NCBI RefSeq assembly: GCF_003991205.1
Contig: NZ_RXOZ01000033.1
Coordinates: 186,001-250,000, forward strand
Length of the DNA stretch: 64,000 nt
DNA from: Georgenia sp. SYP-B2076
Lineage (GTDB): Bacteria > Actinomycetota > Actinomycetes > Actinomycetales > Actinomycetaceae
Direction: 5' to 3'
Under the pieces are notes generated by a model. The model was not told the origin of the DNA. It did not search any database and worked only from the letters and a program-made list of their open reading frames with translations. The stretch's first letter is position 1; every line of letters begins with the position of its first letter. The translations under genes and the position numbers were made by a program. Of the stretch, positions 18,465 to 24,606 are shown one piece after another.

Positions 18465-19490
18465 TCAGCCCAGGCCCGGCAGGGCGGGCAACGTCCCGCC
18501 CCAGGCGTGCACCCGCGCCGCGGCGTCCTCGGCGGCGGCCACGAGCGCCTCCCGGTGCCCGGGGTCGGCGCGGCCCAGCAGATAGGTCCAGTGCGCCAGG
18601 AGTACCTGCTCCGCGGCCACAGCGAGGTTCTGCTCGGCGCTCAGGGATGGACCCGTGGCCACGTCTGCACCCTCCACCCCGCCCGGGCCGGTGAGCGGGC
18701 CGGTGAGGTCGTACGCGCCCATCCGCTCGTCGGGGGCACCCGCCGCGATGGCCGCGTCCACCAGCCCCTGCAGGTACGTCGCGCGCTCGGCGGCGTCCTC
18801 CCGGGCGGCGCCCTTGCTGCGCGCCGCGACCGTCTCGAGGCTGTAGCGCGCGGAGTCGAGCACGCGCACCGTCACCCCGTCGACGCCGACCCCACGCAGG
18901 TCCTCGGCGGTCATCGGCGCGCCCGCCGATGCCGCCGCCGGCTCGCCGAGCGCGGCCGCGAGGTCGGCCGCGGCGTCCGCCCGGGAGATCGACACGGCGG
19001 CCAGGACGGCGGCCAGGGCGTCGTCGTCGGCCTCCAGCGCACCGGCCCGCGCGCTCGCGGCGCCCTCGCGCACGAGCGTCAGGGCGTCCCGCGCGGTGGG
19101 CTCCGCCGTCGGCGCGGCCGTGGACACCTCGGGTGTGGCGACGCCGGCGGGGGCGCCCTCCGGCCACGCCATCCACACGCCGCCGAGGGCCGTGGAGTGC
19201 GACTGGGCGTCCGCCGCCGCGTCCCGGAGGGCCGCCGCGACGGCGGGGTCGGCGTCGGTGATCTCGGACACCGTCCCGGTGATCGTGGCGGCGTCGACGG
19301 CCGCGTCCTGGCGGAGGACCTCGACCGCGTCGGGCGTGGGCACGGCAGGCGGCGGGGTGTCCAGGCGCACGCCGCAACCGGCCAGCAGGGCCGCGGCGGC
19401 AACTGTGGCGGCCGCTCGCGTGCCGCGCCGACTGAGGGCGCGCGGACGGTTCTGGGGGGCCCGGTGGGCGGCGCGAGGAAGGGGGGACAT
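18465..19490 (-). CDS. Secreted lipoprotein, DUF4439/ferritin-like
   Basis: 341 residues from the ATG at 19490. The N-terminus has an Arg-rich start, then AAATVAAAALLAGC: a signal peptide with a lipobox whose Cys (about residue 38) would be lipidated. The rest is Ala-rich and helical. The last 140 residues, including LSAEQNLAVAAEQVLLAHWT and AHAWGGTLP-like ends, resemble the DUF4439 ferritin-like domain found in the lipoprotein divergent from rimP in many actinobacteria. I see no clear di-iron ligand set. Function unknown; an envelope role is inferred from the lipobox. Confidence 0.75.
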   Translation of the reverse strand: MSPLPRAAHRAPQNRPRALSRRGTRAAATVAAAALLAGCGVRLDTPPPAVPTPDAVEVLRQDAAVDAATITGTVSEITDADPAVAAALRDAAADAQSHSTALGGVWMAWPEGAPAGVATPEVSTAAPTAEPTARDALTLVREGAASARAGALEADDDALAAVLAAVSISRADAAADLAAALGEPAAASAGAPMTAEDLRGVGVDGVTVRVLDSARYSLETVAARSKGAAREDAAERATYLQGLVDAAIAAGAPDERMGAYDLTGPLTGPGGVEGADVATGPSLSAEQNLAVAAEQVLLAHWTYLLGRADPGHREALVAAAEDAAARVHAWGGTLPALPGLG

Positions 19491-19503
19491 CGGTGCCGAT
19501 CCT

Positions 19504-19520
19504 CCCACGCGCGGCGTGGG
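19504..19520. promoter_or_regulatory. Palindrome between DUF4439 gene and rimP
   Basis: CCCACGC-GCG-GCGTGGG, a perfect 7-bp dyad with a 3-bp spacer. It lies in the divergent gap, 18 bases before a -10-like TAGTCT (19538-19543) that could serve rimP. It is a candidate operator. Confidence 0.45.
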
Positions 19521-19592
19521 GGCCGTGCCCGGGTGGGTAGTCTGTGGGATTGACCGTGATCGCCCCGGTCCTGCGTGAAGGAGATGTTCTCG

Positions 19593-20078
19593 ATGAGTCC
19601 CGCCCGTCCATCCGACCTGCTCAACCGGCTGCGCGCTGCGCTCGAGCCGGTGGTCGGCGCCTCGGGACTGTTCCTCGAGGACGTGACCGTCGCGGCCGCC
19701 GGACACCGCAAGATCGTCCGCGCCGTGGTGGACCTGCCCGACGGCCCCGGGGGCGTGAGCTCCGACCAGCTTTCCGAGGTCTCCCGCGAGATCTCCGGCG
19801 TGCTCGACGACGTCGACCTCGTGGAGGGCGCCTACACCCTCGAGGTCACCACCCCCGGCACCGACCGCCCGCTCACCGAGCCGCGGCACTACCGCCGCGC
19901 CGTCGGACGGCTCGTCACCGCCGAGACGACGGCGGGGCGCGCGGTCACCGGCCGCCTGCGCGAGGCCGACGCCGCGGGCATCGTCCTCGACGTCGCCGGC
20001 CGGCGCGAGGAGCTCAGCTACGCCAAGCTCTCCCGCTCGCGTGTCGAGCTCGAGCTCAGCCGACCCGACGAGGCCTGA
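19593..20078 (+). CDS. rimP: Ribosome maturation factor RimP
   Basis: 161 residues. RimP helps assemble the 30S head. Its two-domain pattern is visible: the N-terminal half with LEDVTVAAAGHRKIVRAVVD, then VSREISGVLDD and the hallmark EVTTPGTDRPLTEPRHYRRA (about residues 87-107), followed by an SH3-like C-terminus. The ATG at 19593 has AAGGAG at 19578-19583 nine bases upstream; an in-frame GTG at 19575 would put the SD inside the gene. It opens the rimP-nusA-rnpM-infB operon, with nusA 9 bases downstream. Confidence 0.96.
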   Translation: MSPARPSDLLNRLRAALEPVVGASGLFLEDVTVAAAGHRKIVRAVVDLPDGPGGVSSDQLSEVSREISGVLDDVDLVEGAYTLEVTTPGTDRPLTEPRHYRRAVGRLVTAETTAGRAVTGRLREADAAGIVLDVAGRREELSYAKLSRSRVELELSRPDEA

Positions 20079-20087
20079 GGAGGACCT

Positions 20088-21128
20088 ATGGACATTGACA
20101 TGACTGCTCTGCGCCTGATCGAGAGCGAGCGGGGGATCAGCCTCGACGTCCTCGTCCGGGCGATCGAGGAGGCCCTCCTGCTCGCCTACCACCGCACCCC
20201 CGGCGCGATGGAGAAGGCGCGTGTCGAGCTGGACCGCCGCACCGGCCGGGTGACCGTCCTGGCGACCGAGGTCGACGAGGAGGGCCACGACGCCGGCGAG
20301 TTCGATGACACCCCGACGGGGTTCGGTCGCATCGCCACCGCCACCGCCCGCTCGGTGATCGTGCAGCGCCTGCGCGACGCCGAGGACGACCAGGTGATGG
20401 GCAACTACCGGGACAAGGCCGGCGAGATCGTCAGCGGCGTGGTCCAGCAGGGCCGCGACCCCCGCACCGTGCTGGTGGACATCGGTGACATCGAGGCGGT
20501 GCTGCCCGCGCACGAGCAGGTGCCCACCGAGAAGTACGTCCACGGTGACCGGCTGCGCGCCTACGTGCTCGACGTCAGCCGCGGGATGAAGGGCCCGTCC
20601 ATCACCCTGTCCCGGACCCACCCGAACCTGGTGCGCAAGCTCTTCGCGCTGGAGGTCCCCGAGGTGGCCGACGGGTCCGTCGAGATCATGGCGATGGCGC
20701 GCGAGGCGGGCCACCGCACCAAGATGGCCGTGCGCGGCAACGTGCCCGGCCTCAACGCCAAGGGCGCCTGCATCGGCCCGATGGGGCAGCGTGTGCGCGC
20801 CGTCATGACGGAGCTGAACGGCGAGAAGATCGACATCGTCGACTACTCCGACGACCCGGCCCGCTTCGTGGCCAGCGCGCTCTCGCCCGCCCGCGTCAGC
20901 AGTGTCGAGGTCGTCGACGCCGAGGCCCGCGCGGCCCGCGTCGTCGTGCCCGACTACCAGCTCTCCCTCGCGATCGGCAAGGAGGGGCAGAACGCCCGCC
21001 TCGCCGCGCGGCTGACCGGCTGGCGCATCGACATCCACTCGGACACCGAGTCCGACGGCGCGGCCCCCGCCGCCGCGTTGGGTGAGGTGTCCGTCACGGA
21101 CGAGCACGCCGAGGGCGCGCAGGGGTAG
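20088..21128 (+). CDS. nusA: Transcription termination/antitermination factor NusA
   Basis: 346 residues, the short form lacking the C-terminal acidic repeats of E. coli NusA, as usual in Gram-positives. NusA binds RNA polymerase and modulates pausing, termination and antitermination. Visible are the N-terminal RNAP-binding domain ([20 protein letters not shown]), the S1 domain from about residue 110, and the KH domains including [20 protein letters not shown] and [30 protein letters not shown] sits just upstream. The genes on either side all act on translation or transcription coupling. Confidence 0.98.
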
Positions 21129-21142
21129 AGTGTTCGTTGGGC

Positions 21143-21484
21143 ATGAGCCCGGAATCCCATATGAGCAGACGCAACGAGACATCCACGCCCGGCAACGGGC
21201 CGCTGCGCACCTGTACGGGATGCCGGGAACGGGCCCCGAGGTCCGCCCTGGTACGCCTCGTCCTGGACACCGCCGCGCAGCGCGTGGTGGTGGACCCGGG
21301 CCGTGACGCACCGGGACGCGGGGCCTGGCTCCATCCGAGCCAGGAGTGCCTGGATCTCGCCCTGAAGCGCCGAGCGCTTCCACGGGCCCTGCGCGCTGCA
21401 GGGCCGGTGGACACCGGCGGGCTGGGCGGGTGGTTCGGCCAGCACGATCCTCGCGAGGCGTCAGATGCGCCCCGCGAACACTGA
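21143..21484 (+). CDS. rnpM: RNase P modulator RnpM (YlxR family)
   Basis: 113 residues from the ATG at 21143. The YlxR hallmark [19 protein letters not shown] is at residues about 20-38, and [20 protein letters not shown] at about 55-75. Members are small RNA-binding proteins encoded between nusA and infB; the Bacillus homolog binds RNase P RNA. Typical members are 90-100 residues; the extra length is a Gly/Asp-rich C-terminus. The start is uncertain (TTG 21137 and ATG 21161 are alternatives). infB follows only after the unusual leader at 21485-21600. Confidence 0.9.
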
Positions 21485-21515
21485 GTCATCGACGAAGAAA
21501 GCGGGTTGGAAGCCG

Positions 21516-21558
21516 ATGGGCACCCGATGAGTACCCAGCGATGAGCTGCCAGCACTAA
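21516..21558 (+). promoter_or_regulatory. Three overlapping mini-ORFs in the infB leader
   Basis: Three tiny reading frames follow one another. ATG GGC ACC CGA TGA (21516-21530) encodes M-G-T-R. ATG AGT ACC CAG CGA TGA (21527-21544) encodes M-S-T-Q-R. ATG AGC TGC CAG CAC TAA (21541-21558) encodes M-S-C-Q-H. Each of the first two stops overlaps the next start as ATGA, the arrangement used for termination-reinitiation. A weak SD-like GGAAG (21508-21512) precedes the first. The last stop is 42 bases before the infB GTG and 10 bases before the hairpin that covers the infB SD. Reading frames are seen directly; translation and regulation are inferred. Confidence 0.6.
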
Positions 21559-21568
21559 AAGCGGTCCA

Positions 21569-21594
21569 CCCTGTCCGGGCGGGCCGAGACAGGG
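21569..21594 (+). promoter_or_regulatory. Hairpin sequestering the infB ribosome-binding site
   Basis: CCCTGTC at 21569-21575 pairs with GACAGGG at 21588-21594. An inner CGG/CCG pairing (76-78 with 84-86) leaves a bulged A and a 5-nt loop. The 3' arm includes most of the only good SD for infB (AGGGAGAG, 21591-21598). A folded hairpin should therefore block infB initiation until a ribosome or factor opens it. Confidence 0.55.
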
Positions 21595-21600
21595 AGAGTT

Positions 21601-24600
21601 GTGGCAAAGGTCCGCGTCCACGAGCTTGCGAAAGAGCTCGGCGTCGACAGCAAGACGGTGCTCGCGAAGCTTCGCGAGCAGGGGGAGTTCGTGAAGTCGG
21701 CATCGTCGACGATCGAGGCCCCGGTCATCCGCCGGCTGCGCGAGGCATTCCCCGCAGGGGAAGCACCCACTAAGCCGAACGGCCCCAGCGCCGCGCGGCC
21801 CGCAGGCAGGACGGCACCCACCCCGGGTCCCGCCCGACCTGACACCGAGCCGGCGGCGGCACCCGCCCCGGCCGCACCGCAGGCTCCCAGCGAGCCCGCG
21901 ACCACCCAGGCACCGGCCCCCGCAGCGCCGACGGCGGCACCCGCCCCGGCCGCTCCGGCCCCGGCCGCTCCGGCCCCGGCGGCCTCGGCACCGGCTGCTC
22001 CGGCACCGGCCGCACCGGCACCTGCCGCTCCGGCCCCGGCCGCTCCCGTGGCGGCCCCGGCACCCGCGGCCCCGCCCGCGGCCCAGGCGCCCGCCCCCGA
22101 GGGGACGGAGGCCACCGGGGCACGCCCCGCGGCCCGGTCCAACGCACCCAAGCCGGGTGCGCGTCCGGCGCCCGCGCCCGAGGCGAAGCCGCAGACCGGG
22201 ACCCGTCCCGGCGCCGGCACCCGTCCCGGCGCCGGTCGTCCCGGCGCGCCGCGTCCGGGCAACAACCCGTTCGCGCCCTCCCAGGGCATGCCCCGCGCGG
22301 GCGGTTCCGGTCGTCCCGGTGCCGGCGGCGGCGCACCCCGCCCGGGCAACAACCCGTTCGCGCCCTCCCAAGGGATGCCGCGCCCGGGTGGGACCGCAGG
22401 TCCCCGTCCCGGCGGCACCGCAGGTCCCCGACCCGGCGGCACGGGTGGTCCGCGTCCCGCGGCCGCGCCGCGTCCCGGCGGTGGCCCGCGCCCGAACCCG
22501 AACATGATGCCCGGCCACAGCTCCGTGGCGCGGCCCGGTGCGGCACCCGCCCGTGGTGGCGGCCGTGGCCGTCCCGGCGCCGCCGGCACGGGTGGCGCAC
22601 CCGGTCGTCCCGGTGGTGGCGGCGGCTTCGCCGGTCGTCCCGGCGGCGCCGGCGGCCGTGGTGGCCGTGGCGGCACGCAGGGCGCCTTCGGTCGCGCCGG
22701 CGGCCGTCCGGTCCGCGGACGGAAGTCGAAGCGTGCGAAGCGTCAAGAGTTCGAGCAGCAGTCCGCGCCGTCGATCGGCGGCGTGCAGGTCCCGCGCGGC
22801 AACGGCTCGACGGTCGTGCGCATCCGGGCCGGCGCCTCGCTGGCGGACTTCGCCGACAAGATCGACGCGAACCCCGCAAGCCTGGTGACGGTGCTCTTCC
22901 ACCTCGGCGAGATGGCCACGGCCACCCAGTCGCTGGACGAGGACACCTTCAAGGCGCTGGGCGACGAGCTCGGCTACGTGATCGAGATCGTCTCGCCCGA
23001 GGAGGAGGAGCGTGAGCTCCTCGGCAGCTTCGACATCGACCTCGAGGCCGAGGAGGCCGGCGAGACCGACGAGGACCTACATCCCCGCCCGCCGGTCGTG
23101 ACCGTCATGGGTCACGTCGACCACGGCAAGACCAAGCTCCTCGACGCCATCCGTTCCACGGACGTCGTCGCGGGCGAGGCCGGTGGCATCACCCAGCACA
23201 TCGGTGCGTACCAGGTGACCACCCAGCACGAGGGCGACGAGCGTCCCATCACCTTCCTCGACACCCCGGGCCACGAGGCGTTCACCGCCATGCGTGCCCG
23301 TGGCGCGCAGGTGACGGACATCGCCATCCTCGTGGTGGCCGCGGACGACGGCGTCATGCCGCAGACCGTGGAGGCGCTGAACCACGCCCAGGCGGCCGGT
23401 GTGCCGATCGTCGTGGCCGTGAACAAGGTGGACAAGGAGGGGGCCAACCCCGCCAAGATCCGTCAGCAGCTCACCGAGTACAACCTCGTGGCCGAGGAGT
23501 ACGGCGGCGACACCATGTTCGTGGACGTCTCCGCCAAGAACCGCACGGGCATTGACGACCTCCTCGGGGCCGTCCTGCTCACCGCGGACGCCGCCCTCGA
23601 CCTGCGTGCCAACCCCGACAAGGACGCGCGCGGTGTGGCCATCGAGGCCAACCTCGACAAGGGCCGCGGCTCGGTGGCCACGGTGCTGGTGGAGTCCGGG
23701 ACGCTGCACGTCGGCGACTCGATCGTGGCCGGTACCGCCCACGGGCGTGTGCGTGCCATGTTCGACGAGCGCGGCGACACCGTCGCCGAGGCCGGGCCCT
23801 CCCGCCCGGTCCAGGTCATCGGGCTGCAGTCGGTGCCCCGCGCCGGCGACAGCTTCATCGTCGCCCCCGACGACCGCACCGCCCGGCAGATCGCCGACAA
23901 GCGGGCCGCCGCCGACCGCGCCGCCAACCTGGCCAAGCGCCGCAAGCGCATCAGCCTCGAGGACTTCACCAAGGCTCTCGAGGAGGGCAAGGTCGAGACC
24001 CTCAACCTCATCATCAAGGGCGACGTCTCCGGTGCCGTCGAGGCACTCGAGGACGCCCTGCTCAAGATCGATGTGGGCCGCGAGGTCGAGCTGCGGATCA
24101 TCCACCGCGGCGTCGGTGCGATCACGCAGAACGACGTCAACCTCGCGACGGTGGACTCCGCCGTCATCATCGGCTTCAACGTGCGCCCCGCCGAGCGGGT
24201 CGCCGAGCTGGCCGACCGCGAGGGCGTGGAGCTGAAGTTCTACTCGGTGATCTACGACGCCATCGACGAGGTGGAGAGCGCGCTCAAGGGCATGCTCAAG
24301 CCCGAGTTCGAGGAGGCCCAGCTGGGCACCGCGGAGGTCCGCCAGGTGTTCCGCTCCTCCAAGTTCGGCAACATCGCCGGTTCGATCGTGCGCTCCGGCA
24401 CCATCCGCAGGAACACCAGCGCGCGGATCACGCGCAACGGCGTCGTGGTGGCCGACAAGGTCAACATCGACTCCCTGCGCCGGGAGAAGGACGATGTCAC
24501 GGAGGTCCGCGAGGGCTTCGAGTGCGGCATCGGCCTCAGCACGAAGGACGTCCAGGAGGGCGACATCATCGAGACCTTCGAGATGCGCGAGAAGCCGCGC

Positions 24601-24606
24601 GCCTGA
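21601..24606 (+). CDS. infB: Translation initiation factor IF-2
   Basis: 1001 residues. IF2 is the GTPase that places fMet-tRNA and joins the subunits. An IF2-N domain ([20 protein letters not shown]) fills residues 2-53. A low-complexity linker follows: Ala/Pro repeats (about 85-175), then Gly/Arg/Pro-rich sequence (to about 375) containing a duplicated [14 protein letters not shown] second IF2-N domain covers about 395-450. The G domain starts at [14 protein letters not shown] (about 504), with DTPGHEAF and [10 protein letters not shown], then domains II-IV. The length is typical of high-GC actinobacteria. The GTG at 21601 is preceded by AGGGAGAG. Confidence 0.98.
22255..22370 (+). repeat. 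Duplicated 29-nt segment within infB
   Basis: Identical 29-nt copies at 22255-22283 and 22342-22370 are separated by 87 bases (29 codons) start to start, and encode the repeated [12 protein letters not shown] core. Synonymous sites are also identical, which suggests recent duplication or gene conversion in the disordered linker. Confidence 0.7.

What the first reader, a model, noticed from the sequence alone, without database searches (positions are those of the whole stretch)
21516..21558. Three ATGA-overlapped mini-ORFs directly upstream of the IF2 gene
Seen directly: three consecutive frames of 4, 5 and 5 codons, the first two joined to the next by overlapping stop/start (ATGA), end 42 bases before the infB start. 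The peptides are nearly alike (M-G-T-R, M-S-T-Q-R, M-S-C-Q-H), so start-stop spacing rather than product may matter. IF2 drives initiation, so a chain of very short ORFs needing repeated initiation or reinitiation would be an efficient sensor of initiation capacity feeding back on infB. From memory, similar short MST-type frames occur before infB in Streptomyces; I cannot verify that here.
Basis: partly seen in the sequence, partly recalled or inferred. Interest (0 to 1): 0.85.

Follow-up and report, generated by a model that had tools for sequence, protein, structure and literature searches.

The report
Start-stop mini-ORF chain before infB
Just before the gene for the protein-synthesis starter IF2, actinobacteria carry a conserved chain of three tiny reading frames, each beginning inside the stop signal of the last and ending at an RNA hairpin, which looks like a built-in gauge by which the cell could adjust how much IF2 it makes.

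Summary
Window 21516-21558 holds three mini-ORFs (MGTR, MSTQR, MSCQH) joined by ATGA overlaps, 42 bases before infB. It is not chance. Of 290 infB leaders of the same class, 259 have three or more NTGA-joined mini-ORFs. Of 94 leaders under 80% identical, 84 do if 1-nt overlaps also count, against 1.2% of shuffles. RTGA spacings keep one reading phase (153 of 172). ORF1 has an SD-like box; ORF2 and ORF3 have none comparable. In 30 loci of other classes, 0 have the chain.
A hairpin begins 1 nt (median) after the last stop. In the window's order, masking 9 nt after that stop, as a terminating ribosome might, frees a strand that pairs with the infB Shine-Dalgarno sequence: mean switch +2.6 kcal/mol versus -0.1 in shuffles, n=49; window 3.5 to 9.4. 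Class-wide this switch is significant in only 22 of 91.
Best reading: a translational attenuator in which a ribosome must initiate three times before it reaches the position that closes infB. Chain and hairpin are well supported; translation, sign and IF2 as signal are inferred. I found no description in the open papers searched.

The parts
21137..21484 (+). ylxR/rnpM-like gene upstream of the leader; its stop is at 21482-21484
   Evidence: NCBIfam RnpM 55.9 bits, below the cut-off of 80
21499..21512 (+). Purine-rich SD-like box (AAGCGGGTTGGAAG) before mini-ORF1; probable ribosome entry site
   Evidence: across leaders the mean anti-SD duplex energy peaks at -3.6 kcal/mol for 7-mers starting at -15 of ORF1
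21516..21530 (+). mini-ORF1, ATG GGC ACC CGA TGA (MGTR)
   Evidence: 4 codons in 55 of 90 non-redundant leaders
21527..21544 (+). mini-ORF2, ATG AGT ACC CAG CGA TGA (MSTQR), starts inside the stop of ORF1 (ATGA)
   Evidence: 5 codons in 67 of 90 non-redundant leaders
21541..21558 (+). mini-ORF3, ATG AGC TGC CAG CAC TAA (MSCQH), starts inside the stop of ORF2 (ATGA)
   Evidence: 5-8 codons in 80 of 90 non-redundant leaders; all three stop codons are used at its end (TAA 38, TAG 30, TGA 22 of 90)
21562..21567 (+). Strand 1 (CGGTCC), 5' arm of the hairpin next to the final stop (anti-sequestor)
21570..21575 (+). Strand 2 (CCTGTC), complementary to the infB SD region
21581..21586 (+). Strand 3 (GGGCCG), pairs with strand 1
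21588..21596 (+). Strand 4 with the infB Shine-Dalgarno sequence (GACAGGGAG); pairs with strand 2 in the closed form
21601..24606 (+). infB, translation initiation factor IF-2 (GTG start)
   Evidence: TIGR00487 E 3.3e-226

Best explanation
The leader is a translational attenuator of infB. A ribosome enters at the SD-like box before mini-ORF1, translates four codons, and reinitiates at the ATGA overlap to translate mini-ORF2 and then mini-ORF3. Each step needs a fresh initiation event (fMet-tRNA, IF2). While a ribosome waits at the first or second junction, its leading edge (about 10 nt past the stop; figure recalled) does not reach strand 1 (21562-21567). The 1:3 hairpin can then form and the infB SD stays at least partly open. 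Only a ribosome that has completed all three initiations and sits at the final stop (21556-21558) covers strand 1; strand 2 then pairs with the SD and infB is closed. Plentiful initiation capacity thus lowers IF2 synthesis and scarcity raises it. Shown by sequence: chain, phase, entry site, hairpin at the stop and, for most leaders tested in the window's order, the predicted switch. Inferred: translation of the frames, IF2 as the limiting signal, and the sign. Rough probabilities: frames translated by termination-reinitiation 0.85; hairpin gated by the ribosome at the last stop 0.75; closing of infB in the window's order 0.5; IF2 as the signal 0.35-0.4.
For: Chain of >=3 in 84 of 94 leaders <80% identical versus 1.2% of 2,820 shuffles when NTGA or 1-nt overlaps are accepted; 259 of 290 before dereplication, NTGA only. 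RTGA spacings of 8-24 nt are 2 mod 3 in 153 of 172. ORF2 and ORF3 second codons begin with A in 90 of 90 each (largely forced by the overlap), whereas ORF1, which overlaps nothing upstream, has G or C in 14 of 90. Where the ORF1 ATG has become ACG, an in-frame upstream GTG or ATG is seen (L109, L115, L128, L161, by eye). Where ORF3 is 23-26 codons (L277, L282, L294) its stop is still at the hairpin, first paired base 1 nt on. SD-like energy minima precede ORF1 (-3.6) and infB (-7.4); ORF2 and ORF3 reach only -1.8 and -1.9 within 16 nt. Hairpin more stable than shuffles in 70 of 91 and dependent on the 9 nt after the stop in 58 of 91. Order-level switch mean +2.61 vs -0.12 kcal/mol, highest mean of 60 shuffled sets 0.36; >1 kcal in 34 of 49 vs 17% of shuffles; p<=0.05 in 26 of 49; window 0 of 60 shuffles as large. 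Window: SD opening 3.45 to 9.37 kcal/mol, P(2:4) 0.77 to 1.00 with 9 nt masked. 1:3 helix: 19 cells changed on both sides, at most 14 in 300 partner shuffles. Where the codon before the stop at a junction ends in A it is CGA in 108 of 151, while CGA is 8 of 84 NNA codons in eight window CDS; a rare codon there may lengthen dwell (inference).
Against: Across 91 leaders the switch is significant in only 22 (1 opposite), and SD opening in the masked state is above shuffles in 26 but below them in 11; the Streptomyces-like leader L132 and several other families show little, so SD sequestration is not class-wide. The 2:4 helix shows no covariation beyond chance: 84% of cells paired against 83-85% in partner shuffles, 4 cells changed on both sides against up to 7 in shuffles and 5-6 in two slid versions; only sliding separates it (at most 57%). 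RNAalifold on the 49 leaders predicts part of 1:3 only. A GACAGGAG SD also occurs in leaders without strand 2 (by eye). The unoccupied window RNA already leans to the closed form (P(2:4) 0.77, minimum-energy fold closed), so the open state would have to be kinetic or ribosome-assisted. The result depends on footprint: in the window masks of 6-10 nt close the SD, 12 nt gives 4.38 and 15-18 nt 2.7-3.0 kcal/mol; order-level with 10 nt, 28 of 49 rise by >1 and 4 fall by >1. No ribosome profiling, reporter or IF2 depletion data were available.
Confidence: 0.45

Rival explanations
1. Positive relay: the chain is a ribosome landing pad that carries ribosomes by repeated termination-reinitiation towards infB, and the hairpin only shortens the gap to the infB SD.
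For: Hairpin and chain are class-wide while the SD switch is not. In M. [quoted passage not shown] Masking 15-18 nt, as a ribosome moved slightly onward would, gives a window SD opening energy of 2.69-2.98 against 3.45 kcal/mol unmasked.
Against: The final stop lies a median 43 nt from infB rather than overlapping it. infB has its own strong SD (-7.4 kcal/mol mean). In the window's order a ribosome at the stop predicts a more closed SD in 34 of 49.
Confidence: 0.27
2. Same ribosome-gated leader, but the sensed variable is not IF2: for example ribosome-targeting drugs, recycling factor, release factor, or the tRNA reading CGA.
For: CGA before the stop in 108 of 151 junctions whose last codon ends in A. 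infB is listed in the SigR regulon of Streptomyces (PMC5472188, passage) and has a WhiB7 ChIP peak upstream in M. abscessus (PMC10727445, table row).
Against: The chain multiplies initiation events, not elongation events, and sits on the gene of the factor that carries the initiator tRNA. CGA preference could also be an RNA-level motif (CGATGAG).
Confidence: 0.2
3. A protein-binding RNA repeat (GATGAGYAC) whose reading frames are incidental.
For: RTGA words recur mostly at 11- and 14-nt spacing (66 and 73 of 172).
Against: Phase is kept while spacing and sequence vary; junction starts are ATG 161, GTG 11, CTG 6, TTG 2 of 180 and final stops interchange TAA/TAG/TGA; lost starts have in-frame replacements.
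Confidence: 0.06
4. Chance arrangement without function.
For: None beyond the short length of each ORF.
Against: 84 of 94 versus 1.2% of shuffles.
Confidence: 0.01

Closest known systems
Yeast GCN4 leader (four short uORFs; recalled, not looked up)
   Same: Several very short uORFs; reinitiation between them; sensing of the carrier of initiator tRNA
   Different: Bacterial, start-stop overlapped without scanning distance, sits on the gene of the carrier itself (IF2), predicted output through SD pairing
Translational attenuators of the erm/cat kind (recalled)
   Same: Ribosome position on a leader ORF chooses between exclusive RNA folds, one closing the SD
   Different: Three linked ORFs, no known stall peptide or drug; ribosome at the last stop is predicted to close rather than open the gene
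ATGA termination-reinitiation gene pairs (PMC6728339, passages; RTGA-coupled ORFs, PMC4633059, passages)
   Same: Stop-start overlap coupling
   Different: The coupled ORFs are mostly 4-8 codons, in series, and do not overlap the gene they precede
infC (IF3) autoregulation by a non-canonical start codon (PMC5472188, passage)
   Same: Initiation factor gene with translational homeostasis
   Different: infB starts here with GTG; the device is a leader chain
NusA-mediated feedback on the metY-nusA-infB operon (as described in PMC4448216, passage)
   Same: Feedback on the corresponding operon
   Different: Transcription-termination based and at the head of the operon

Membership tests
ATGA termination-reinitiation coupling | Stop and next start overlap by 4 nt (or 1 nt) | tested here: met
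[quoted passage not shown]
   ORF2/ORF3 lack a comparable SD of their own, which is only suggestive
Translational attenuator | Leader ORF with ribosome-binding site | tested here: met
   SD-like box before ORF1, weaker than that of infB
Translational attenuator | Two exclusive RNA folds, one sequestering the SD, chosen by ribosome position | tested here: inconclusive
   Predicted in the window and in 34 of 49 order-level leaders, but significant in only 22 of 91 class-wide, and 2:4 lacks covariation
Translational attenuator | Ribosome stalling or occupancy changes expression | not testable with these tools
   no experiment
GCN4-type uORF sensor | Multiple short uORFs with reinitiation | tested here: inconclusive
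   Architecture met; reinitiation itself not measured
GCN4-type uORF sensor | Response to initiator-tRNA carrier level | not testable with these tools
   no experiment
Known Rfam leader | Match to an Rfam 15 family | tested here: not met
   0 matches up to E=1 in window 19000-22500
Intrinsic transcription attenuator | Hairpin followed by a U-run | tested here: not met
   0 terminator-like sites in window 21100-21700; other leaders not scanned

The most novel reading that the evidence does not exclude
A bacterial counterpart of GCN4: a chain of minimal ORFs that makes one ribosome undergo several successive initiator-tRNA loadings and so reads IF2/fMet-tRNA availability with multiplied gain, placed on the IF2 gene itself and conserved through most of the class Actinomycetes.
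Probability: 0.35. Interest if true: 0.93.

Novelty: new variant of a known kind. Interest (0 to 1): 0.84.

Why it matters
How bacteria keep IF2 in step with translation is, as far as I know, not settled (recalled). A leader that counts initiation events would be a direct homeostatic device, testable with reporters and existing Ribo-seq, in a class that includes antibiotic producers and important pathogens. It would also show that the uORF-reinitiation logic known from eukaryotes arose independently in bacteria, and it gives natural tandem substrates for studying termination-reinitiation.

Tried and rejected
Rfam: nothing. A strict nucleotide pattern (GATGAGTACNCGATGAGTAC) hit 0 of 100 genomes of the phylum, the window's own among them: sequence identity is the wrong handle, because frame geometry is what is kept. 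The pattern ATGA..ATGA..ATGA gave 30 places in the own genome (pattern reversed: 4); 0 of these 30 loci hold an NTGA chain of >=3 ORFs of 2-8 codons. This pattern cannot see the infB chain itself, whose ORF1 begins ATGG. An intrinsic terminator was rejected for the window. I considered, by eye, that the 3' arm of the hairpin might pair with infB codons 3-6 (in Streptomyces-type leaders CCGGACC against GGTCCGG); I did not test it. A class-wide SD switch was rejected: 22 of 91. Free-state SD opening energy does not differ from shuffles.

Limits. The 290 leaders include the window's own (L201) and some genomes fetched twice (e.g. L125 and L220, both G062). Dereplication kept 94 of 290. Fold tests used 91 of 94; three with a stop-to-infB gap outside 30-70 nt were dropped (L165, L272, L298). 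The order-level set of 49 (from 69) keeps only leaders with a chain >=3 and a gap of 38-48 nt. Start and stop entropies are zero partly by construction, since the frames were chosen by the chain search. In some leaders the search with ORFs up to 30 codons picks extra upstream or alternative frames (e.g. L110, L126, L272), and the final stop of L165 is misplaced. One value of the SD profile (ORF3 at -12) is corrupted. For the 30 loci of other classes several start assignments are doubtful (L179, L181, L189, L190, L194), so absence there is less certain. Loci from G handles bear no organism names. Paper searches covered open-licence PMC only; supplements could not be read.

Full report
What is there. 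One search confirms three frames of 4, 5 and 5 codons at 21516-21558, the first two stops overlapping the next start as ATGA. They lie between ylxR (stop 21482-21484) and infB (GTG 21601) in a rimP-nusA-ylxR-infB order (the RimP and YlxR/RnpM models score below their cut-offs, 139.7 of 150 and 55.9 of 80 bits; NusA and IF-2 above). Nothing in Rfam matches.

Not chance. I gathered 290 infB leaders of the class, the window's own included (80 named loci; the rest). The longest NTGA-joined chain of ATG/GTG ORFs within 200 nt was 3 in 225, 4 in 29, 5 in 4, 6 in 1, 2 in 29 and 1 in 2. After reduction to 94 leaders less than 80% identical, 78 of 94 have >=3 by NTGA alone (0.7% of 9,400 shuffles). If 1-nt overlaps such as TAATG also count, 84 of 94 do (1.2% of 2,820 shuffles). 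The reverse strand has 1 of 94 with NTGA alone. Four Bifidobacterium-like leaders (L043, L219, L225, L230) have two chained ORFs with a long second one (kinship inferred from the named L043). L015 has lost a junction, L104 has a 2-nt gap in place of one, and L298, from a 0.8-Mb genome, has no chain. Named genera with the chain visible by eye include Georgenia, Ruania, Kineosporia, Geodermatophilus, Frankia, Amycolatopsis, Nocardia, Rhodococcus, Gordonia, Mycobacterium and Micromonospora. In 30 loci of other classes of the phylum, 0 of 30 had >=3.

Marks of translation. Without assuming frames, RTGA spacings between 8 and 24 nt are 2 mod 3 in 153 of 172 cases, as NTGA chaining requires. Usual lengths are 4, 5 and 5-8 codons but change by whole codons: 4-4-6 in L132, 4-3-5 in L151, 6-6-6 in L119. 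In the 90 of 94 leaders with >=3 frames when CTG and TTG starts, 1-nt overlaps and ORFs up to 30 codons are allowed, junction starts are ATG 161, GTG 11, CTG 6, TTG 2, and final stops TAA 38, TAG 30, TGA 22. When the ORF1 ATG has become ACG (L109, L115, L128, L161), an in-frame GTG or ATG lies just upstream (by eye). An SD-like energy minimum precedes ORF1 (-3.6 kcal/mol) and infB (-7.4); ORF2 and ORF3 reach only -1.8 and -1.9 within 16 nt. Where the codon before the stop at a junction ends in A, it is CGA in 108 of 151; CGA is 8 of 84 NNA codons in eight CDS of the window.

The hairpin. In 91 leaders with 30-70 nt between final stop and infB, the first paired base lies a median of 1 nt after the stop (90 of 91 within 8 nt). 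The fold upstream of the SD is -16.4 versus -10.6 kcal/mol in shuffles, p<=0.05 in 70 of 91. It is lost when the first 9 nt are masked, more than in shuffles, in 58 of 91. In the 11 leaders whose last ORF is 9-26 codons long the stop still abuts the hairpin (offsets 0-7 nt).

The switch. In the window, strand 1 (21562-21567) pairs with strand 3 (21581-21586), and strand 2 (21570-21575) pairs with the SD region (21588-21593); the two cannot form together without a knot. On 49 order-level leaders 1:3 is paired in 260 of 287 cells (partner shuffles at most 88%) with 19 changed on both sides (at most 14 in 300 shuffles). 2:4 is paired in 247 of 294 cells (84%; slid versions at most 57%, but partner shuffles 83-85%) with 4 cells changed on both sides (shuffles up to 7), so its support is conservation, not covariation; RNAalifold finds part of 1:3 only. 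Masking 9 nt after the stop raises SD opening energy by a mean of 2.61 kcal/mol against -0.12 in shuffles; >1 kcal in 34 of 49 against 17%; < -1 in 2 of 49 against 20%. In the window it goes from 3.45 to 9.37 kcal/mol; the unmasked RNA is a mixture leaning to the closed form (P(1:3) 0.23, P(2:4) 0.77), and masks of 12, 15 and 18 nt give 4.38, 2.69 and 2.98. Class-wide the switch is significant in 22 of 91 and opposite in 1; SD opening in the masked state is above shuffles in 26 and below in 11 of 91. Other families therefore either lack the switch or use another readout.

Mechanism. A ribosome at stop 1 or stop 2 reaches to about 21540 or 21554 (taking 10 nt past the stop, recalled) and leaves strand 1 free; at stop 3 it reaches about 21568 and covers strand 1. 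Only ribosomes that have initiated three times therefore close infB in this model. That makes the leader a multi-step gauge of initiation capacity with negative feedback on IF2. Translation, IF2 dependence and sign are inferences; the positive relay remains the main rival.

Literature. Search listings. Passages only were seen in PMC11260477, PMC6728339, PMC4633059, PMC5472188, PMC10727445, PMC13236596, PMC4448216, PMC7157823, PMC10158994 and PMC12121999; in PMC6511841 only reference-list entries. In PMC9094748 the search terms, infB among them, gave no passage. None of what I saw describes an infB mini-ORF chain; subscription papers and supplements were not searchable. GCN4 and erm/cat comparisons are recalled.

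Noticed in passing
L165, L168, L296, L302, L318 (upstream of infB): In these leaders the last frame before the hairpin is 21-23 codons when read by eye, with a recurring LRSA-like segment in four of the five; it may encode a real leader peptide.
   Followed up: partly
junctions of 94 leaders; window 21525-21527 and 21539-21541: The rare codon CGA is strongly preferred before the UGA stops of mini-ORF1 and mini-ORF2 (108 of 151 junctions whose last codon ends in A).
   Followed up: partly
L137 and L156 (upstream of infB): Leaders from small genomes with AT-rich flanks keep the chain but use a TAATG junction in place of one ATGA.
   Followed up: partly
L132, L105, L127 (hairpin 3' arm and infB codons 3-6): The 3' arm CCGGACC is complementary to GGTCCGG in the infB coding start; a possible alternative sequestor in families without strand 2. 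Seen by eye, not tested.
   Followed up: no
upstream of infB in Mycobacterium abscessus and Streptomyces (papers): A WhiB7 ChIP peak and SigR control are reported for infB, so infB may have its own stress promoter near this leader.
   Followed up: no
window 21850-22400: The IF2 N-terminal region is a long low-complexity Ala/Pro/Gly-rich stretch.
   Followed up: no
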